Source: Dasypus novemcinctus | Lineage: Eukaryota; Chordata; Mammalia; Cingulata; Dasypodidae | Assembly (NCBI RefSeq): GCF_030445035.2 | Contig: NC_080689.1 | Location: 23,403,278-23,467,277 of the forward strand | Reading direction: 5' to 3' | DNA length: 64,000 bases | Shown here: in pieces, positions 26,961-40,853 of the stretch | How the letters are laid out: each line of letters opens with the position of its first letter | Numbering within the stretch: position 1 is the stretch's first letter | Translations under genes and position numbers: made by a program | The notes under the pieces: model-generated | Databases searched by the model: none | Told to the model about the DNA's origin: nothing | What the model saw: only the letters and a program-made list of their open reading frames with translations

Positions 26961-27123
26961 CAGGGGAGAGCATGACACAGTCCCCCACTACCACAAATTA
27001 TGCAATTACATTTCCCATACTTGGGGAAATCACAGGGGTCAGCACATCCAGAGTACAATGGATAAGCCTTGCCCTAGGAAAATCGCCTTTGTGATCATGG
27101 CATCTCCCCTGCCAAGGGAATTT
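26961..27123 (-). pseudogene. RNU1: U1 snRNA retropseudogene, full length
   Basis: On the minus strand almost the entire U1 snRNA (about 164 nt) is readable. It has 'ggcaggggagatgccatgat' in stem-loop I, 'aaggcttatccattg', 'ggatgtgctgacccctg', the Sm-site region 'ataatttgtggtagtgg' (the functional AAUUUGUGG core) and the closing 'ctctcccctg'. Several substitutions lie in the first bases that should pair with 5' splice sites and in the loops. An A-rich tail follows on the minus strand (T-run 26954-26960), and no snRNA promoter elements are visible. These facts indicate L1-mediated retroposition, so it is not expected to be expressed. Confidence 0.92.
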
Positions 27124-30644: not shown

Positions 30645-31983
30645 TTGGGCAGTTTGAGATTTGTAGCAGTTTGATATGGTTAGGAATTCCAAAAATAAAT
30701 ATTAGATTAGGTTTGTAAACTGGTCTGTACCTGGGCATGATTAAATATCATTAAGGCTTTGATTGGGACATGTCAGAAGGATGTTGAGTCCTTGCCCCTT
30801 GGTGGGTGGGGACTTACAGATAAAAGACATGGCAAAAGGCAGAGTTTAGGGTTTCTCATGTTGGAGTTTGATTCTGAAGCCTTAAGCTGGAGCCCCAGAA
30901 AGTCAGTATACAGAGGAAAGAGAATTAAGGCCCAGGAAGAGAGGACCTGAGCCAGGAGAACACAGAGGAATAGAGACAGCTCCTTAGACATGGCAGAAAC
31001 CCCAGTGAGAGAGACAGAGCCATTCACCTGATAGTCTACAGCTGACCATGTGGAGAGAGGCAAAGTCTAGAGAGGCTCAGAGTCTACAGCTGACCTTGTG
31101 AAGAAAACAGAGAAGCTAAGCCCAGAGGAACCCAGTAAGCCTAAACCTTCACAGACATCAGCAGCCATCTTGCTCCAACTTGTGGAAATAGACTTCGGTG
31201 AGGGAAGTAATGTATGCTTTATAGCAACTGTAAGCTACCCGTTACCCCCAAATAAATACCCATATAAAAGCCAGCAGATTTCTGGTATTTTGCATCAACA
31301 GCCCTTTGGCTGACTAATATAAGATTATTTTATAAATCCCCAACCGAGAAGGATTGTGTTTTTTAACTAATCTATTCCTGTGAGTGTGATAGCCTTTGAT
31401 TGCAGGTCCTTTAATTAGATTACTTGATAAGATCACTTTAGGGCTTTTGATTGGGCTACATCAGTGGAACATGGTTCATGTTGAGTCTCTACCCTCTTGC
31501 TGGATCTGATAAAAATTGAGACACAAATGGATACAGACAGACACAATTAAAAGCAGCCATCATATTTAGTCCTGCAGGGTGAGGGGGGAAACAATAGCTT
31601 TACTCACAGCTGAGTTGCAAGGAAGGAAGCTCCTGAAAGATTCAAAGAGCTGAGGCACAAGGGGAGATGAGCCATAAACTCAATAACTTGCAGCTGATCT
31701 CAGGAAGAATGCAGAACAGCTGAGATTGATGATGGAGTCCTGGAAGGAGAGAAGCCCTATGCCTGATTGCCCTCAGCTGAGTTCATATATGGGCAGAGAT
31801 CAGCAGCCATCTTGCTTCATCATGTGGCAGCCGAATTTGGTGAGAAAGCACCTTTTATGGAGCCCCAAATTAGATGTTTTGCAGCTGTGGAACTGTAAGT
31901 TTTTACCCCCAAATAAACATCCTTTATAAAGGCCTACCTATTTCTGTTACTTTGACTCTGCAGTTCTTTGGTAAACTAAAACA
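30645..31983 (+). mobile_element. Outer ERVL-type LTR, interrupted by an inner LTR
   Basis: The parts 30645-30661 and 31322-31983 together resemble the LTR at 46933-47505: 'gcagtttgagattattt' near the start, 'cagcagccatcttgcttcat', a gtgag motif and 'ttacccccaaataaaca' near the end. The target duplication CAATT lies at 30640-30644. Its partner is at 40849-40853 because the provirus was inserted at this LTR's last bases. The AATAAA near 31911 suits a plus-strand polyadenylation signal. Confidence 0.8.
30662..31321 (+). mobile_element. Inner ERVL-type LTR nested in the outer LTR
   Basis: Begins tgtagcagtttgatatgg and ends ctgactaatata. The 5-bp duplication AGATT is at 30657-30661 and 31322-31326. 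It matches the LTR at 56741-57242 along its length ('gccttaagctggagccc', 'cagccatcttgctccaac', 'ccccaaataaatacccat'). The AATAAA at about 31251 is the likely polyadenylation signal. It shares the family's last 100 bases with the outer LTR. Confidence 0.88.
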
Positions 31984-31984
31984 C

Positions 31985-32511
31985 TGTCACAGGTTGACAC
32001 TGCTACCATTTTCCACTGGACTGAGGCATCCCTCAGGCTGGTGGGCTTGAACTAGTTGGCCCTGGGGGAGTGAGGACGGATATGGAGACTCTGCACATTC
32101 CTGAGACAGGGTTCTGGACCAAGTCTAACTTTATTACGTAGGAATAACAATTTATAGTTCAGAGCAATAGGGAAGGGGGGCTAGGTGGTATTTGATTGGC
32201 GGGGTCGAATATATGCCCAAACAAGGAGAGGGGTAAGCTATGGGGGATGGTTAGGTTGATCATGTAGGCTGAGTTTTTTCACGCCATACTGCTTGATTGG
32301 TGGGGATTAAACAAAGGGAGAGGGGCTCGGAGAGGAGGAAGAAGACGTGGTGTAGCTGGACAGGGCTTGGTTGCCATTCTGTCTGACTTTGTGGTCAGCA
32401 GCCATTTTGTTTAGCTGTGTGGTTGCCTTAGAGACAGCTTGTCGGCAACTGATAAGCTATGCCTTGTTGGCTGTGCACAGGGTGCTCTTGGGAGCTTTTA
32501 TTTCTCCTACA
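31985..32511 (-). repeat. Provirus 3' LTR
   Basis: A 527-bp partner of the 5' LTR with the same ends. The TATA-like box is at 32149-32156 and AATAAA at 32130-32135 (minus strand). Differences from the 5' LTR are scattered, as expected from neutral decay after integration. Confidence 0.93.
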
Positions 32512-32525
32512 ATTCCTCCTTTTTT
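32512..32525 (-). other. Polypurine tract
   Basis: The minus strand reads aaaaaaggaggaat directly before the 3' LTR. It is the expected plus-strand DNA primer site. Confidence 0.85.
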
Positions 32526-32559
32526 ATATTTTTAAAGAAAGTGGCTTATGAGTAGAGAC

Positions 32560-32730
32560 TTGTGGTGACCGCCCCTTTCTTAGGTTGCCTTCCTCTGAAG
32601 GTCTTACCCGTTATTGGCTGCCAGTCAAGCCTAAGCAAGTGTAATGGTCTAAGGTGGCTGCGCCTGTCTTAGGTTGCCTTCCTCTGAAGATCTTACCTGT
32701 CATTGGCTGCCAAACAATCTCTTAGAAGGA
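32560..32730 (-). promoter_or_regulatory. Putative constitutive transport element (CTE)-like repeat
   Basis: Between the env stop and the 3' LTR, two 46-bp copies (32578-32623 and 32667-32712) sit at an 89-bp period. Each on the minus strand has 'ccaat(g/a)ac(a/g)ggtaaga', a short spacer and 'aacctaaga(c/a)agg'. These are the kind of paired motifs I recall from the type-D retrovirus CTE, which recruits the export receptor NXF1/TAP to unspliced RNA. The location is the same as in those viruses. This is recalled similarity and was not tested by alignment or folding. Confidence 0.65.
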
Positions 32731-33871
32731 GGAGGCCCAGTGTGTACTTTTAGCAAGTTTGTCACACGATCCGATTGATGACAACTGTTTGGTTGTTTTT
32801 ATGGCAACCCAGGTTGAGTAGGGGCTTGTTGGCATGGGTTGTGGCAGGTTAAAAATTGGTTTGAGCTTCAGTTTTCAGTAATGGCTGATATGGCAAGCAC
32901 TGCAATTGAAAAAAGGTTAGTAGGGAGATACTTCGTATTTGTTTCTTAATGAATTTCATGATACAAGGAGCTAGAAGTAAGAAAAAGAACAGGGCTAAGA
33001 GGGGGATAATGGAGGGGCCATCCAAGCTAAGAGTGGAGAGCTGAACCAGGAAAGAAGAATGTTTTGGTTTTGGTTTTTATTGGACAGTTTGATACGTAAG
33101 TTGTGTGAGGTTTGTAGGTCTTGTTCTATGACTGCGGACTCATTTACATAGAAACAGCATTGTTCTTGTAAGAAGAGGCATGTGCCACCTTTTTTCTGCT
33201 GTCAGCAGATCTAGGGTGCAATGGTTTTGAAGGGCTATTTGTACTAGTGAAGTAAGCTGTCTTTGGAGGGCTTCTAGGGATTGTGCTGGGTTTTCAATAG
33301 TGATTTGCAGTGCATCGTTAAAATTGTTAGCGGTGATAACGCTATGACCTAGGGCGCTGCCAGTGATGGCAACAGTAGCGAGTGTGGCAGTAAGACTGGC
33401 ACCCACTAGAATGGGAAGAAATGCTGCTCTTTTAGAGTGGGACTGCAGGAGCAGGTAACTAACCTTACATTCACTATATAGTGTAAGTTGAGGGACTAAG
33501 GCAACTAAGACACAGGGCGTGTTGAAAGATGCGTTTAAACAGGGGGTGAGGGAGTGGTTGCACCAGAAGTAAGGGCCTTTTGGTGCGGGGTAGGATGCAG
33601 CGATGGAGAGGTTGTGCATACATGGGAGAGAGGAAGAGCTAGAGGAAGGAGGGGAGGAGGTGGCAGAGGGGAAAGTAAAGCACATGATGTTGATGAGGCT
33701 GACATTCCAGAGGGGAATGCTGGGCAGTATGGGCTCGTTGCATGAGTTGTTGTTTCCATAAGGGAAAGATGAATTGCAATTGCCAATTGGGACAGTGACC
33801 ATAAGGGGGCGGGCAAGGGAGTCGCATAGGAAACAGTGGATAAGATTGGGGGCTATGTGTGAGTTGTTGAG

Positions 33872-34806
33872 TGCGACGGTTTGCTCGGTCGGTAGAGGTG
33901 GGGTCTGGCTGCGGACGAGGGGTCGGTCCAGCTCAGGACGAGGGGTCGGTCCCGCTTGGGACGAGGGATCGGTCCTGCTTGGGACGAGAGGTCGGTCCGG
34001 CAGCAGACGAGGGGTCGGTCTCACAGGGGTTGCGCAGTTCGGCTGACGGGGTCGCCCGGCGAAGCTGGCGACGAAGGGGTTGCCTGGAGAAGCAGGCGAC
34101 GAACTGGGGACAAGGGAGGCCAGGCCCTTGTCAGGGGCTCTCAGGACTGGAGGGCGCACGGCAGAAGAACTACCGCGGAGACAAGGTAAACACGCAAGTC
34201 CACTTTATTGAGGGAGAGGCAACAGTTTTATAGGGGCTGGGGAAGGCTGATTGGTCGAAGCCACGCCCTGTTCTGATTGGTTGCTGGAGAAAGGTCAGTG
34301 GGCGGTGCTGGATGGGGGTGGTGGTGGTTAGGGATGGGCTGTTGCTGTTGCTGGGGGAAGTGGCAGGGTTTAGTGATTGGTGGCTGCTGTTGCTGGGGTA
34401 GAGGGCAGACTGGAGTTTCCCACCCATGCCTGGCTGTTGCTGCTGTCGGGGGGAGGGAAAAGGGCAGACTGGATTTTTCCGCCCACGCCTGGCTGTTGCT
34501 GCTGTCGGGGGGAGGGAAAAAAGCAGACTGGATTTTTCCACCCTGCGCCTGCGCAGGGAGAAAGAAGAAGAAGGGTTCCGCCCCACAAGGCATCCTGTGG
34601 CGCCATCCGGGAGGAGGGGCGGCCGCGGAAGCATGGCTGCTAAGAAGGGGAGACCCGAGGGCACTCTGCGCCCATGCCGAGCTTCCTTCAGGGGTGGCGG
34701 TGGGCCCGACCAACCACCCTATTATGGGGGCAGCGGAATTAGGCCTACCGCGGCCGCTCCCCTCGCCAGGCCAGCAAACCACACTTCAGCCCGAGGGGAG
34801 ACCGCA
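33872..34806 (-). mobile_element. GC-rich solo LTR nested in env (935 bp)
   Basis: TG...CA ends on the minus strand (tgcggtctcc ... aaccgtcgca) and a perfect 6-bp duplication GTTGAG at 33866-33871 and 34807-34812. It has a TATA-like box at 34226-34232 and AATAAA at 34204-34209 (minus). It contains about five copies of a 23-24-bp gacgaggggtcggtc unit (33912-34029) and a longer imperfect repeat with 'gctgttgctgctgtcggggg' (34408-34555). It is CpG-rich compared with the surroundings. It inserted after the provirus. No internal genes remain. Confidence 0.9.
33912..34029. repeat. Five-copy 23-24-bp tandem repeat in solo LTR
   Basis: Repeated unit gacgaggggtcggtc plus a variable 8-9-bp spacer, lying in the U5/R part on the minus strand, downstream of the polyadenylation signal. 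Confidence 0.85.
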
Positions 34807-35364
34807 GTTGAGGTATTGTTAAGGATGTGTAGCCAGGTAAAAGATGTAATAGAAATTGTGGCTGTGGGTGAATAACGTTTTGGAGTTCTTTTTCTGCTTT
34901 TGAGATTATATTTTTTGTTTTTTGTAATAGAGCAGTGCAATTATATAGGGTATAGAGTCGAGCAACGTCGATGAAGCTGGAGGGAGTGGAGGTATAGGGA
35001 GAATAATACAGTGCTCCTCTGACTCCTGTGGCCCACCTGGGGTGCCAAGGGTCCGTGATGTGTAGGTAAAAGGAGGTACTATTTGCATAGAATAATCCTT
35101 TGGTAAATAGGGCTCTTTGTACCCAGGCATTAAAATAGACCCAGGAAAAATATGGACAGCCTCCGTAGATTGCGTCATACCGGTTTTGAGTGCAGTAGTC
35201 TTTGGTTTGGGTATGGGGAAAACAGGCATAAGGTTATGTGCTCCATCGTTTAGAGCCGAGCTTAATGGCAGTGGGCCTGATGGGAAAAGTAATGGCTTCA
35301 CTGCAACCTGTAAGGGGGCAAGTGGCGGATCCAATATTTTGACTTACGGTCTGTTCAGTGGTGC

Positions 35365-38062
35365 TTATGGTTTCTGGTACGGTGAAAATCTAAGCGTAGT
35401 TGTCAATTTGTATGGTTGGGGAGAAGGGTGAGAAATAGGAGGGGAAGGAGTAGTAGGGGTGTTACCGTACAAGGAGGATGTAGGCGGCTCCAAGGATGTT
35501 GCTGGTCGGAGACACGGGCTAGGAACCCAGATGGGATGTTCAGCATTTTTGGGAAAGATACAAACATATCCTCTACCTTGGGTCAGCAATACATGCGGAC
35601 CATGCCAGTCATTTGTCAGGGGATCCTTCCATCATACCAGGGGCAACGGTGTTGGTGCATTGCGCAGGCCTCCCCAGTGTATGGCTGCAGGGGAAAGACC
35701 TTTTTGATTAAAAGAAAGGTAATTTATAGTTATGAGGACTTTAGTGAGTATTTCTTTGGGGATATCATTATTAGTATTTCCCTCTTTTTGTTTTTTAATT
35801 TGTTGTTTGAGAGTAACATGTGCTCTTTCAACAATACCTTGTCCTTGAGGATTATAAGGAATGCCAGTGGAGTGGGCGATCTTCCAAGTATCACAGAATT
35901 GTTGAAAGCCACGGGATATGTAACATGGGCCATTGTCAGTTTTTAGCTTCCATGGAATGCCCATATGAAGCATGGCTTGCAATAAAGCAAATGTGGCATA
36001 TTTTGTTTTTTCTCCTGTAGAGGCTGTTGCTATTATATAGTGGGAGAAAGTGTATATAATGACAAGCACGTATTTTTGTTTTCCAAAGTTGGCTACATGA
36101 GTAACGTCCATTTGCCATATAGAATTGGGTTTAAGACCTCTAGGGTTTACTCCTTGAGGCTGCAGGGGTCCCAGAGGCAGAAATGGACTGCAGGTGCTGC
36201 AGGCCTGTGTGAGGTGTTTGCACTGCTGTTGTGAGAGTGAGGGAAAGAGTGTATGGAGGGAGTGAGCTGACATGTGGAAGCGTGAGTGAAGAGCCCTGGC
36301 TTGATCAATGACAGAGGCTGTTAGGATGAGGGCTTTATCTGCTTGGTCATTACCCTGTGTAAGGGGCCCTGGCAGGTCTGTGTGAGAGTGTATGTGTTGG
36401 ACATACCAGGGATGCTTTCTGTTTTCCAGTAACTCTTGGGTGTTGGCAAGCATGACGTCTAGGAGATTGTTTTTATCATGTAGAATAGCAAGGGGCAGTG
36501 CCTTAATGACTTGTGCAGCATAGGTGCTGTCGGTAAATATGTTTAGAGGAATATTTTGATGATAGAGAAGGGTATGAAATATGGCATATAATTCCCCTTG
36601 TTGCACTGAGCCAGAATGCTTTTCTCGCCAGATTTTATCGGGATGGCCTGATTGTTTTAGAACGGTTGCACTATGAGTTTTGTTGGTGTCAAGTGAAGAC
36701 GAGAGGAGCGTTAGGAATGGGGGTGGAGGTGGCAAAGGCATATGGTTGGGCGGAACAGGGCAGAAGGGTAAGGCTGGTAATTAGTCTGTGCCTAGGAAGG
36801 TGGTTATCAATTTTTCCAGATAATTTTCTATTAGCAATTGCATTTCAATGTTATGTTGAATAAGGTGGTCTAATTGTTCTGTAGTGGAGGGCAGGATTAG
36901 AACATCAGGTTCAGAGCCATATAGGTGCACAGCAGTACATCTTAGCTTTCTTCCTAACATACAGAGAGTGGTAATATGCAGCACTACTTTGCTTAGACTA
37001 CTGTATGCAAGATGAACCCAGAACAGGGGATTATTTTGGAAGAGAACACCTGTAGGTGTTCCTTTAGTAGCTAAAACTACAGCTAATAAAGGGAGACGAG
37101 GGTCAAACTTGTAGAGCGGTAAGTTGCTTAACTGTAAATTGAATTTTCGAATACATTCAGTGGCAGGGGTATCTAGAATGCGTTTACTGCTGGGTTCAGG
37201 GTCACTTTGCAGGAGATCAAAGAGTGGTCTGAGTTCATAAGTGGTCATATTAAGGTGTGGATGGATCCAGTTAATATCCCCACAAAGTTTTTGTAATTCA
37301 ACTAGGGAGGTGATTCTTGGTAGTTGAATGGAAGGTGTTAAAGGTATTATTTTATCTGTTATATGATATCCCAGAAATTGGAAACGTGTATACATTTGGA
37401 CTTTTTCTGGGGCTATTTGTAGCCTTAACTGGGCTAGATTGTGGAGGAGTACCTTGAAACAGGTGTGCAGGTGACCTTGGTCAGGATGAGAGAGTAAGAT
37501 ATCATCCATGTAGTAAATAATTTGGCAGTATTCAGCTAGTGGGTATACTGCATGATGAGTGAAGGATTGGCATATAGTAGGGCTGTTTTTCATACCTTGG
37601 GGAAGAACTTTCCATTGGAAGCACTGGGATGGGATGGCGTTGTTAATGGAGGGCACGGTGAAAGCAAAATATGGGCGATCATCAGGGTGCAAAGGGATAG
37701 AAAAGAAACAATTTTTTATATAATTGCTATGACAAAATTGTCATGGCAAATGGCAGAGGGATGCAGGAGGCCAGGCTATAAGGACCCCATTGTTTCCATG
37801 TGTGCACTTATGGCTCTTAGATCATGGAGTAATCTCCACTTGTGTGAGGCTTTTTTCTGTATTACAAATATTGGCGAGTTATGGGGGCTAGTAGAGGGCT
37901 CTATGTGATCCGAGTCTAATTGTTGTTGAACTAGATCACAAAGGTGAGTAAGTTTATGTCGAGGCAACAGCCACTGCTCCACCCAGATGGGGCTTTTAGT
38001 ATCCCATCAGAGTTTTATTGGATCTGGTTTGCTTATAGTCAATAATGGTGGAGCAGTGGCCT
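35365..38062 (-). pseudogene. pol: pol remnant (reverse transcriptase, RNase H, integrase)
   Basis: The N-terminal RT frame (below 37982) has [20 protein letters not shown] and [12 protein letters not shown]. It ends with a TAG where the family has a sense codon, and the region with the first catalytic Asp (about 37700-37780) is scrambled by shifts. From 37692 the frame is open, with FQWKVLPQGM and YMDD at 37501-37512. A TAA at 36781-36783 precedes a 370-residue open frame (35632-36741) holding RNase H (Glu50, TDSTY Asp71, Asp132 of that frame) and integrase: an H156/H160/C181/C184 zinc site and a D212, D269, E305 triad (DD35E). A TGA at 35632-35634 interrupts the integrase C-terminal domain, which goes on to 35365 in phase ([20 protein letters not shown]). 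Confidence 0.94.
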
Positions 38063-38469
38063 TTAGAATTGGGGCGGCTGACTGGTAGTTAAAATTATTC
38101 CTAGTTGTTGGAATATATCTCTGCCCCATAAAGTATTTTGTAAATTAGGCAGCACTAGCCATTTAAAGGAGCCTGAATGACCCTCTCAGTCTGACCAAGG
38201 GAGTGGGTCACATGATCGTTGAGACGTCCTTAAGCCTTCAATCCCTTGTATTATTGGGCCTAGGATTAATGGCCAGGATGGATCAGCATCTTTGGCGTTT
38301 AGGACAGAAACATCTGCGCCTGTGTCTATTTGTCCTTTTATTTCTTTACCATGGACTGATAACATCAGCCAGGCCTTCTGCTGCATTATAGGGATAGTCC
38401 AATAAATGCTAAAAGGGTTGTCATTTGTATTGCTTTCTGATTCTTCTCTTGTTATGTAAAAATGGTCAT
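38063..38469 (-). pseudogene. pro: pro remnant (retroviral aspartic protease)
   Basis: Reads WLMLSVHGKEIKGQIDTGAD, in which DTGAD (about 38312-38326) is the catalytic Asp motif of one protease subunit; the dimer would cleave Gag and Pol. A TGA at 38186-38188 interrupts it. The same frame then continues to the C-terminal Gly-Arg-Asp motif (WGRDIFQQLG) and a TAA at 38063-38065. It is in phase with the nucleocapsid knuckles, whereas betaretroviral pro normally needs a frameshift. Only about 85 residues separate knuckle 2 from DTGAD, so the dUTPase domain common in betaretroviral pro is absent. Confidence 0.88.
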
Positions 38470-40212
38470 TATCATTTCTATAGCCTTTTGAGTCCTCTCT
38501 TACTGAACGGGGCTGAGAGGTGCCCTGGAGGGAGTTTAAAGATGGGAGGGGGCAGCCATCAACTTCGGTTTTTGATTTACAATCTCGCTTCCAATGAAAC
38601 CCTTTTTTGCATCGGGGGCACTTGGTAGGGGGAGCCTGATTGGCGGATTGGGAGTTTTGCTTTGATGGGCAATTACGGGCGAAATGCCCAGGTTGATTAC
38701 AGTGGAAGCAGTTACTTGGTCGAGTGAGGGCATTAATGGACAGGTGTTCTGCCAGAGCTGCGGCAAGAATGGTAGCTGAGCTAGAGCTGACGTCCCTGCA
38801 TGCAAGCACCCAATCCTCTGGAGTGCCGTTTCTGAGTGGGGCAATAGCTTTACGACATTCTTCACTGGCACCGTCCCACAGCAAATTAGAAATAAGGGCC
38901 TTTGCTGCATCGCTGTGAGTGACTTTGCACTCCACTGCCTCTTTGACTCGACTATAGAAGTCAGCTAAGCATTCATTGGGCTTTTGGACTAATTGAGAGA
39001 TTTGAATGGGTGTACCTTTAGGATTTAGCTTGCGGAAAGCTCTTTGTGCACAAAGCCAGCACTGGTCAAAATTTCATCATTATCTGCCTGTGCTTCAGGG
39101 GAGGCAAATAGGCCTTCACCCTTTAGAGTGTGTACTGGCACAGGATTTTTTGCAGTTCTATTGCATATGGCAAGGACTTCTGCGTCATCGTAGTAAAGAA
39201 CTTTCCAGGTGATGTAGTTGCCTGGTGGTAGAATAGCTCGGGCTATATTTTTCCAATCTACAGGACAATTTTGCTGGTAGGATAGATTTTCCAACAGCAT
39301 TTGGGCATAGGGGCTATTGAGTCCATCTTCTTGGACAGCCTTCCTGAGGTTTGAGATAGTTTTATGATCATGAGGGTACCAGGCATCAGGGCGCTCAGTA
39401 CCGCGGTGCTGGTTTACAGGGAAGAGTTGTGGGGGCAGAGAGAATGAGTAAGTGCAGCAGTGGTTTTAAGAGGGGGTGGGGGCTTTAGCCTGCAGAGGAG
39501 CAGAGTTATCCTGACTTTTGGGAGGAAATGAGGGAGGGCTCACATAAGGGGAAGTATCTAATTGGGGAGGAGCGGGCTCTTTGTTTCTGAGAAAGGCGGG
39601 GCTGTGGCTTCCACTCTCAGAGGCTGAGCTGTGGTTCCCGCCCTCAGGGGCTGGGCTCTCCAGCAACATGTCTGTTTGGTTTGTTAGCAAGCCTGAGCTC
39701 TGTGCTGGACGAGGAGGAGGGGATAACTCTTGCCTAGTATGCTCTTGTGAGTTGTGCTCAGTAAAACTGATTTTTTCTGACTGGAACTCAGTTAGCGAGT
39801 GGTAAAGGGGCTCCCACAAAGCATAGTAGGGGGGAGAATCGGTGCAGAGGTTGGGGGGATCAAGATCCCTGAGCAGTGGTGTTTGCTCTGAGGCCATTAG
39901 ATCAGGGAGCACGGAAGGAGGTTCATCTGGTGGCGCGCTGGAAAGACAGGCATAGATAGCGAGCAGTGCAAGGATAAGGCCAAGCGGGAAAGTTTTGCCC
40001 TCATTAACCTCAGCAGAACGAACCCTTTTTAACAATTTTGCCCAGGTGTGCGGGTCCCAGAGAGAGGCAGAAGAAAGCCACGGGTTAAAGTGTACAATAA
40101 GATCCCAATACTGATTGAGTTCCTTTTCTGAAATTTTTATGCATCTACTAGCTAGGAGAGCATGAAGTGCCTGCACTTGCAGTGTCCTTGCGGAGGACAA
40201 GAGGTTGCCCAT
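38470..40212 (-). pseudogene. gag: gag remnant (matrix, capsid, nucleocapsid)
   Basis: The likely start is the ATG at 40210-40212, because it gives MGNLLSS with the glycine needed for N-myristoylation and membrane targeting of Gag; an in-frame ATG six codons upstream does not. Matrix text follows (KISEKELNQYWDLIVHFNPW), then a proline/serine-rich stretch. A TAA at 39466-39468 interrupts the frame. Capsid continues in phase with HDHKTISNLRKAVQEDG and later LPPGNYITWKVLYYDD. Near 39075 the frame shifts and gives the capsid C-terminal region, with the major-homology-type VKEAVECKV vicinity. Nucleocapsid has two CCHC knuckles, CFHCNQPGHFARNC (about 38669-38710) and CPRCKKGFHWKRDC (about 38579-38620), which would bind viral RNA. 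The C-terminal boundary with protease is not resolved. Confidence 0.92.
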
Positions 40213-40298
40213 GATAGGGCAGGGGATCACTCAGCTGATAGTGGCGTACAATGCCGTTCCCCAAGGTCCCTGTTCAGCAGGACTGTCTCTGTCCATAG

Positions 40299-40316
40299 GC
40301 CCCACGTTGGTCGCCA
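40299..40316 (-). other. Primer binding site, tRNA-Lys1,2 type
   Basis: The minus strand reads tggcgaccaacgtggggc, two bases after the 5' LTR. It is one mismatch (A for C at position 6) from the primer site complementary to tRNA-Lys1,2 that type-D simian retroviruses use. The leader to the gag ATG is only about 86 bases. Confidence 0.88.
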
Positions 40317-40318
40317 GA

Positions 40319-40843
40319 TGTCGCAGGTTGACACTGCTACCATTTTCCACTGGACTGAGGCATCCCCCAGGCTGGTGGGCTCGTACTAGTTGGCCCTGGG
40401 GAAGTAAGGATGGATACAGAGACTATGCACACTCCAGAGACAGGGTTCTGGACCAAGCCTAACTTTATTAGGTAGGAACAGCAATTTATAGTTCAGGGCA
40501 ATAGGGAAGGGGGGCTAGGCGGTATTTGATTGGCGGGGGCAAATATATGCCCAAACAAGGAGAGAAGTAAGCTATGGGGGACGGTTAGGTTGATCACGTA
40601 GGCTGAGTTTTTTCACACCATACTGCTTGATTGGTGGGGATTAAACAAAGGGGAGGGGCTCGGAGAGGAGGAAGAAGACATGGTGTAGCTGGACAGGGCT
40701 TGGTGCCATTCTGTCTGACTTCGTGGTCAGCAGCCATTTTGTTTAGCTGTGTGGTTGCCTTAGAGACAGCGTGTCGGCAACTGATAAGCTATCCCTTGTC
40801 GGCTGTGCACAGGGTGCTCTTGGGCGCTTTTATTTCTCCTACA
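40319..40843 (-). repeat. Provirus 5' LTR
   Basis: A 525-bp terminal repeat with TG...CA ends, paired with 31985-32511. On the minus strand a TATA-like box lies at 40483-40490 and AATAAA at 40464-40469, only about 20 bases downstream. The polyadenylation signal therefore lies in U3 next to a short R. Confidence 0.93.
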
Positions 40844-40853
40844 AAACACAATT

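What the first reader, a model, noticed from the sequence alone, without database searches (positions are those of the whole stretch)
32560..32730. Possible type-D-retrovirus-like CTE in a xenarthran endogenous provirus
Seen: two 46-bp copies at an 89-bp period between the env stop (32849) and the polypurine tract (32512). Each on the minus strand carries ccaat(g/a)ac(a/g)ggtaaga followed by aacctaaga(c/a)agg. Known: Mason-Pfizer-type viruses carry a CTE at this same place, made of two related motif sets that bind NXF1/TAP and export unspliced RNA without a Rev protein. Inference: this old provirus used the same export strategy, which would put CTE-type elements in a lineage far from primates. 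The similarity is from memory of the CTE motif and needs alignment.
Basis: partly seen in the sequence, partly recalled or inferred. Interest (0 to 1): 0.75.

Follow-up and report, generated by a model that had tools for sequence, protein, structure and literature searches.

The report
Tandem-hairpin RNA export signal in provirus
An old retrovirus in this animal genome carries, just after its envelope gene, two side-by-side RNA hairpins that look like the docking site monkey retroviruses use to get their RNA out of the nucleus, and the same hairpin recurs in other retrovirus groups of the same genome in one-, two- and interlocked-copy forms.

Summary
The repeat is real and functional-looking. 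Between env stop (32851-32849) and 3' LTR (32511), minus strand, two units lie 89 nt apart, 86% alike over 65 nt. Each holds both strands of the NXF1/TAP-binding loop of simian type-D CTEs; one strand is identical over 13 nt to an SRV-1 CTE piece printed in PMC4330393. The host genome (3.61 Gb, unnamed) has 178 exact hits of the two-strand pattern and 1,124 of a shorter one; reversed-pattern controls give 0. I compared 125 loci, in 14 flank-defined clusters. Two families share the element but not env tail or start of U3. Stems change in step as two separate hairpins would; local pairing beats cross-pairing in 62 of 62 scorable two-unit loci. So the simian two-fold hairpin is not the favoured fold here, though cluster 4 in the same genome has that arrangement. 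Single units occur behind beta-type (GP41) env (clusters 3, 6; few ORFs) and type-D env (cluster 7). Best reading: a CTE-type, NXF1-recruiting element in tandem half-CTE form. NXF1 binding and export are inferred; the host was not identified.

The parts
31985..40843 (-). Endogenous provirus, 5' LTR about 40319-40843, 3' LTR about 31985-32511, with GTGTTT on both outer sides (31979-31984 and 40844-40849)
   Evidence: LTRs 93.75% identical over 528 columns, K2P 0.0619; flanking 6-mers read
38186..40227 (-). Broken gag/pro pieces, betaretroviral type (Gag_p10, Gag_p24, CCHC, RVP)
   Evidence: Pfam hits on separate ORFs; the first four solved capsids listed are 2kgf, 4ard, 6hwi, 2v4x (that these are M-PMV and JSRV capsids is recalled)
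35632..37737 (-). Broken pol pieces (RT, RT thumb, RNase H, integrase)
   Evidence: Pfam; best solved match 7sr6 'Polymerase'
32849..34201 (-). Broken env TM part, type-D/gamma-like (TLV_coat), last stop codon at 32851-32849
   Evidence: Pfam E 9.7e-16 on ORF 33140-34201; tail frame and stops
32656..32715 (-). Unit 1 of the export element: single hairpin with outer stem 32715-32711/32660-32656, loop strand a 32706-32691, inner stem 32690-32686/32681-32677 capped by AGAG, loop strand b 32675-32663 with AAGACA at 32670-32665
   Evidence: window: outer 4 of 5, inner 5 of 5 pairs
32567..32626 (-). Unit 2: same design; outer stem 32626-32622/32571-32567, strand a 32617-32602, inner stem 32601-32597/32592-32588, strand b 32586-32574 (AAGAAA at 32581-32576, one change from AAGACA)
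   Evidence: window: outer 5 of 5, inner 5 of 5 pairs
32512..32525 (-). Polypurine tract just before the 3' LTR
   Evidence: sequence AAAAAAGGAGGAAT read

Best explanation
The stretch of about 150 nt at 32567-32715 (minus strand) is a CTE-type RNA export element of a type-D-like betaretrovirus, built as two tandem 'half-CTE' hairpins. Each hairpin has an outer stem, an asymmetric internal loop (strand a CCAATRAYRGGTAAGA, strand b AACCTAAGACAGG) and a 5-bp inner stem with a 4-nt cap. Lying after env, it would be in both unspliced and spliced RNA; each loop would recruit one NXF1-NXT1 heterodimer and so carry intron-containing viral RNA out of the nucleus without a Rev-like protein. Shown: sequence, position, recurrence in many copies and several clusters, stem covariation. 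Inferred: NXF1 binding, export activity, absence of a Rev-like protein.
For: Motif: 13 of 13 nt with an SRV-1 CTE strand printed as a primer in PMC4330393; 4 of 2000 shuffles score as well. That paper says each CTE unit holds a conserved AAGACA in its internal loop and takes one Tap-p15 (passage seen). AAGACA is intact in 148 of 171 units with 15-nt spacers, and in 67 of the 89 of these that do not match the exact search pattern. Recurrence: 40 places scored of 515 candidates, all 40 matching the 171-nt query; 178 exact pattern hits, control 0; 1,124 hits of a shorter hairpin pattern, control 0. In family B (21 copies) the element is 83-87% identical to the window's, while env tail and first 112 bases of U3 give no match at E 1e-4. 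Inner stem of unit 1: C-G/T-A exchanges at three of five positions between or within A and B; 144 of 171 units pair 5 of 5. Outer stem: AGTTG/CAACT, AACTG/CAGTT, GGCTG/CAGCC, GACTG/CAGTC, GGCCG/CGGTC all occur. Local beats cross pairing in 62 of 62 two-unit loci, and in forced-fold energy in 39 of 40 aligned copies. The free fold holds at least one local inner stem in 36 of 40 copies, both in 21 of 40, and a cross stem in 0 of 40.
Against: The window copy alone is not unusually stable (z +0.50, 138 of 200 shuffles as good; units z -0.49 and -1.54), and its local and two-fold folds differ by only 0.9 kcal/mol. In the window's own cluster the inner stems do not separate local from cross pairing (9.55 vs 9.55 of 10, 11 loci); only the outer stems and energies do. 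Free folds are on average 2.4 (A) and 2.2 (B) kcal/mol better than the forced local fold, 4 of 40 free folds have neither local stem, and RNAalifold did not recover both full hairpins in A, B or the joint set. Re-dealing the 3' halves among 42 distinct inner stems at its maximum reached the observed 16 fully paired stems (mean 8.2), though not the mean pairs (4.31 vs max 4.12). The match to the second SRV-1 piece is within chance in this copy. Pattern searches fix motif letters, so their hits cannot show motif conservation. No relevant Rfam family. No binding or export data.
Confidence: 0.82

Rival explanations
1. A canonical type-D CTE: one long two-fold symmetric hairpin, strand a of unit 1 facing strand b of unit 2 and the reverse, as in M-PMV/SRV-1.
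For: In the window the cross inner stems are also 5 of 5 and 5 of 5; energy is only 0.9 kcal/mol worse. Cross-complementary spacers exist in the same genome (cluster 4: GGGCTGACCCATCAGTC and CTGATCACTTAACGGGTGCAGCCCC).
Against: Cross pairing is lost in related clusters: inner Watson-Crick pairs of 10, cluster 0 local 9.59 vs cross 2.67, cluster 2 9.2 vs 5.9; 62 of 62 two-unit loci favour local. No free fold of 40 copies has a cross stem. Single-unit clusters cannot form it.
Confidence: 0.1
2. A chance or purely structural tandem duplication in the 3' untranslated region with no export role.
For: The window copy has no unusual folding energy.
Against: Two units 14% apart against about 6% between the LTRs, so the duplication predates integration; kept in families with unlike flanks; paired changes in two stems.
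Confidence: 0.04
3. A conserved hairpin pair with another job (RNA packaging, stability, polyadenylation or translation), resembling a CTE by its loop.
For: PMC11459146 mentions interaction of the host helicase DHX15 with the M-PMV CTE region in a study of RNA packaging (start of the abstract seen in the listing), so CTE regions may have more than one role.
Against: Both loop strands are like the CTE strands, with the AAGACA core.
Confidence: 0.12

Closest known systems
CTE of simian type-D retroviruses (M-PMV, SRV-1)
   Same: Position between env and PPT/LTR; two copies of the loop strands (13 of 13 nt in strand b; 12 of 14 in strand a, the latter within chance, letters from PMC4330393); AAGACA.
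   Different: Two tandem single-loop hairpins by covariation, not one two-fold hairpin.
gamma-CTE of murine leukaemia virus pol (PMC4174252, passages seen)
   Same: Single stem-loop with AAGACA; in that paper one to three tandem copies did little, four and eight raised Gag.
   Different: Lies in pol, about 100 nt; I had no sequence to align.
Tap-binding elements in bat endogenous betaretroviruses (PMC3621094, passages seen)
   Same: CTE-type motifs in non-primate endogenous betaretroviruses, sought as repeats within and after env.
   Different: No structures or architectures are given in the passages seen.
CTE in intron 10 of NXF1 (named in PMC4174252)
   Same: AAGACA loop and receptor, per that paper.
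   Different: Cellular intron; not looked for here.
MER11-derived CTE of SERV-K/MER11 (PMC11379458, passages seen)
   Same: Rev-independent export element of an endogenous betaretrovirus, near the 3' end.
   Different: About 1 kb; the authors found no NXF1-binding-loop motif.
SPRE (PMC8579622, outline and passages seen)
   Same: RNA element at the 3' end of many mammalian endogenous retroviruses.
   Different: Its 17-nt core matches the window region at best in 10 of 17 positions.

Membership tests
Type-D retroviral CTE | Lies between env stop and PPT/3' LTR | tested here: met
   Stop 32851-32849, element 32715-32567, LTR from 32511
Type-D retroviral CTE | Two copies of an internal loop with the conserved AAGACA strand and its partner strand | tested here: met
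   Both units present; AAGACA in unit 1, AAGAAA in unit 2; AAGACA in 148 of 171 units elsewhere and here
Type-D retroviral CTE | One long hairpin with the two loops related by two-fold symmetry | tested here: not met
   Local pairing beats cross pairing in 62 of 62 two-unit loci. In the window copy alone the margin is small.
Type-D retroviral CTE | Direct binding of NXF1/TAP | not testable with these tools
   needs an RNA-protein binding assay
Type-D retroviral CTE | Exports intron-containing RNA without a viral protein | not testable with these tools
   needs a reporter assay; a Rev-like reading frame was not searched for
Type-D betaretrovirus (host provirus) | Betaretroviral gag-pol with gamma-type env | tested here: met
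   Pfam on separate ORFs and solved-structure matches
SPRE | 17-nt SPRE core motif | tested here: not met
   best ungapped match 10 of 17
MusD / IAP transport elements | sequence or structure match | not tested
   I had no sequence of these to align

The most novel reading that the evidence does not exclude
The half-CTE hairpin is the ancestral unit. In this genome it occurs alone behind beta-type (GP41) env, alone or doubled behind type-D env, and as an interlocked two-fold CTE. The simian CTE would then be a strand-swapped pair of tandem hairpins: the window's family pairs equally well locally and crosswise in its inner stems, as an intermediate should. This would also mean that the export signal existed before betaretroviruses swapped in a gamma-type env, which is one of two scenarios left open in PMC3621094. 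The order of events is not shown here; recombination in the other direction would give the same picture.
Probability: 0.4. Interest if true: 0.75.

Novelty: new variant of a known kind. Interest (0 to 1): 0.62.

Why it matters
The best-known CTE is the simian two-fold hairpin, and PMC4330393 (passages seen) argues that a two-fold NXF1-NXT1 platform fits it. A natural tandem form and a natural single form let one ask whether two-fold geometry is needed at all. A single hairpin behind beta-type env also bears on how type-D viruses kept RNA export when they replaced env (left open in PMC3621094). With 1,124 places matching the short hairpin pattern in one genome (86 of the 100 listed have a fully paired inner stem), transcripts that read through such copies might be exported by them too; that is speculation.

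Tried and rejected
Rejected: SPRE (core 10 of 17); Rfam families (at gathering score only U1, elsewhere in the window; one weak below-threshold frameshift match on the other strand); IMG/VR as a source of relatives (the 16-mer gave 94 stretches, which I did not examine further; the two-strand pattern gave 0); alignment of the window copy alone with the second SRV-1 piece (chance level); the canonical two-fold fold for the window family; pure chance duplication.

Led nowhere: RNAalifold did not recover both full hairpins in family A, family B or the joint set. The paper on TAP-binding sequences (PMC114269) is not held; I saw its title only in a reference list. Literature searches showed, in titles and abstract starts, no paper on tandem half-CTE hairpins or on CTEs of xenarthran proviruses; the library holds only CC-licensed PMC papers, and most hits beyond the listed rows were not seen. 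The LTR search of the genome did not complete. Host identity, MusD/IAP alignment, the NXF1 intron and a Rev-like frame were left untested. The 78 of 178 places that one search did not list, and the 1,024 of 1,124 that one search did not list, were not looked at.

Full report
What is there. The window holds a minus-strand provirus with LTRs at about 31985-32511 and 40319-40843 (93.75% identical; K2P 0.0619, 23 transitions and 8 transversions over 526 sites) and the same six bases, GTGTTT, on both outer sides (read). With a recalled neutral rate of about 2.2e-9 per site and year this is roughly 14 million years; the rate for this host is unknown. Separate ORFs match betaretroviral Gag_p10, Gag_p24 and CCHC fingers, protease, RT, RNase H and integrase, and the env TM part matches TLV_coat, the gamma/type-D kind; four further ORFs of 144-184 aa gave no family. 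The capsid piece matches 2kgf, 4ard, 6hwi and 2v4x best (recalled as M-PMV and JSRV capsids). The PBS looks like the Lys1,2 type with one change (read; label recalled).

The repeat. Between the env stop (32851-32849) and the LTR (from 32511), two units of 65 nt, 86% alike, lie 89 nt apart. Each holds strand a (CCAATGACAGGTAAGA or CCAATAACGGGTAAGA), a 15-nt spacer and strand b (AACCTAAGACAGG or AACCTAAGAAAGG). The joint pattern is found twice in the window and in 0 of 100 shuffles. The units differ by 14% and the LTRs by about 6%, so the duplication was in the virus before it integrated.

Likeness to the simian CTE. PMC4330393 prints two primers for the SRV-1 half-CTE (passages seen). Strand b is identical over 13 nt; 4 of 2000 shuffles of the env-LTR interval score as well, and in a scan of overlapping 300-nt bins the element is the best place in the window. 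The strand a piece matches 12 of 14 letters, which 130 of 2000 shuffles equal, and the best places for it in the window lie elsewhere. Taken alone the window copy is thus suggestive. Its folding energy is ordinary (z +0.50).

Other copies. The host genome (G000, 3,610,404,205 bases, 546 contigs, unnamed) has at least 40 places like the 171-nt query (40 scored of 515 candidates, 83-100% identity). I aligned the window and 39 fetched copies. They fall into family A (19, flanks like the window) and family B (21, of which L129 is identical in sequence to L128). In B the element is 83-87% identical to the window's while env tail and the first 112 bases of U3 give no match at E 1e-4; three of the 21 show a weak match (67-72%) in the TM region. 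The TM protein of B is 51% identical to the window's over 136 residues in the hit of best E-value (cluster 2). An exact two-strand search found 178 places, reversed control 0, of which 100 were listed. I held or fetched the loci of the listed places: 30 from the search, 62 by coordinates; the other 8 rows lie in the window or in loci already held. With the window and the first 39 this made 132 loci; 7 were dropped as identical around the element, leaving 125 in 14 clusters by their LTR-side flank. These clusters are not a taxonomy: singletons 9 and 11, for example, have the same units as part of cluster 0. A shorter hairpin pattern with free spacer gives 1,124 places, control 0, 100 listed; of these 100 spacers, 86 pair 5 of 5 and 13 pair 4 of 5, against a mean of 38 and a maximum of 52 fully paired in 1000 re-dealings.

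Structure. Two folds compete. Local: each unit folds on itself. Two-fold: strand a of unit 1 faces strand b of unit 2 and the reverse, as in simian CTEs. Between families A and B the inner stem of unit 1 changes from CCTTC/GAAGG to TCTCC/GGAGA or TCCTC/GAGGA, while unit 2 stays CCTTC/GAAGG; in B local pairs hold in 99 of 105 and 103 of 105 cells, cross pairs in 86 and 82 of 105. Over all clusters 204 units were found, 171 with a 15-nt spacer; of these 144 pair 5 of 5, 24 pair 4 and 3 pair 3. The outer stem varies in step too (AGTTG/CAACT, AACTG/CAGTT, GGCTG/CAGCC, GACTG/CAGTC, GGCCG/CGGTC), and each of the ten stem positions is paired in 156 to 167 of 171 units. In 62 of 62 two-unit loci local pairs outnumber cross pairs. 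Forced folding favours local in 18 of 19 A and 21 of 21 B copies. In free folds, both local inner stems appear in 9 of 19 A and 12 of 21 B copies, at least one in 17 of 19 and 19 of 21, and cross stems in none. Limits: free folds are on average 2.4 and 2.2 kcal/mol better than the forced local fold, and RNAalifold did not recover both hairpins. In the window's own cluster the inner stems cannot decide (9.55 vs 9.55 of 10), and the window copy's two folds differ by 0.9 kcal/mol; there the outer stems decide (9.55 vs 8.45). On 42 distinct stems the re-dealing control reached the count of full stems at its maximum (16; mean 8.2), but not the mean pairs. Folding z-scores are moderate: per-unit means -0.77 to -3.08, whole-element means -0.83 to -1.35.

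Forms. Two units, local: clusters 0, 1 (with the window), 2, 8, 9, 11, at periods of mostly 80, 88, 89 or 112 nt; in cluster 1, 8 of 22 loci showed one unit at my tolerance. One unit: clusters 3 (19), 5 (8), 6 (4), 7 (2), 12 (1). Two-fold: cluster 4 (13 loci; two units seen in 9), whose two spacers are complementary to each other; the four predicted folds printed (L142, L145, L150, L206) pair these spacers in one long hairpin, but the first strand a then folds into a small side hairpin instead of facing the second strand b. Singletons 10 and 13 do not fit cleanly. A TM like the window's was found upstream by tblastn in 26 of 30, 13 of 22, 20 of 20, 9 of 13, 2 of 2, 2 of 2, 1 of 1 and 1 of 1 loci of clusters 0, 1, 2, 4, 7, 8, 9, 11, and in none of the 34 loci of clusters 3, 5, 6, 10, 12, 13; many loci hold only 700-900 bases upstream. 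Pfam on single ORFs gives GP41 (beta-type) env for cluster 6 (L171, E 5e-23) and cluster 3 (L190, E 6e-12; L198 and L164 below the curated cut-off). Other ORFs of cluster 3 gave only below-cut-off matches to unrelated families (L161, L163) or none (L161), a second ORF of L171 none, two short ORFs of cluster 5 none, and the cluster 0 ORF tested (L144) was integrase. Clusters 4 (L145, L150) and 7 (L147) gave TLV_coat. So the env type rests on one or two clear ORFs per cluster.

Mechanism. From PMC4330393 and PMC7551171 (passages seen): the CTE loop with AAGACA takes one NXF1-NXT1 (Tap-p15), which carries intron-containing RNA to the pore without a viral protein. AAGACA stands in 148 of 171 units, and in 67 of the 89 units that do not match the exact pattern. 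The step from this likeness to binding and export is inference. PMC4174252 (passages seen) found for a single-loop hairpin with AAGACA that one to three tandem copies did little while four or eight raised Gag; this is a precedent for adding copies, and a caution that two may be weak.

Verdict. A CTE-type element by sequence, place and covariation, in a tandem half-CTE form that I did not see described in the searches made (CC-licensed papers only). Not filed as a canonical type-D CTE, because the two-fold fold was tested and is not favoured.

Noticed in passing
G000:C2, 20034058 to 20063507: Five hairpin hits 7.2-7.4 kb apart on one strand, which looks like a tandem array of a provirus or its flanking segment.
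   Followed up: no
L194:827-1124: A single half-CTE with a 13-nt spacer, and 252 nt on the first unit of a two-fold type CTE, so two architectures may sit in one locus.
   Followed up: no
window 26961-27123, minus strand: Full-length U1 snRNA match, 109.6 bits; gene or pseudogene not decided.
   Followed up: no
window 34396-34551: A direct repeat of about 97 nt, 59 nt apart and overlapping, 88.7% identical, upstream of the TM ORF, presumably in the env surface-protein region.
   Followed up: no
window 32788-32813, plus strand: Weak match to a flavivirus frameshift element, below the gathering score (E 0.056); probably chance.
   Followed up: no
G000:C7, 124148300-125325900: Five pattern hits within about 1.2 Mb (L180-L184), of which L184 and L181 are identical around the element, suggesting segmental duplication.
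   Followed up: no
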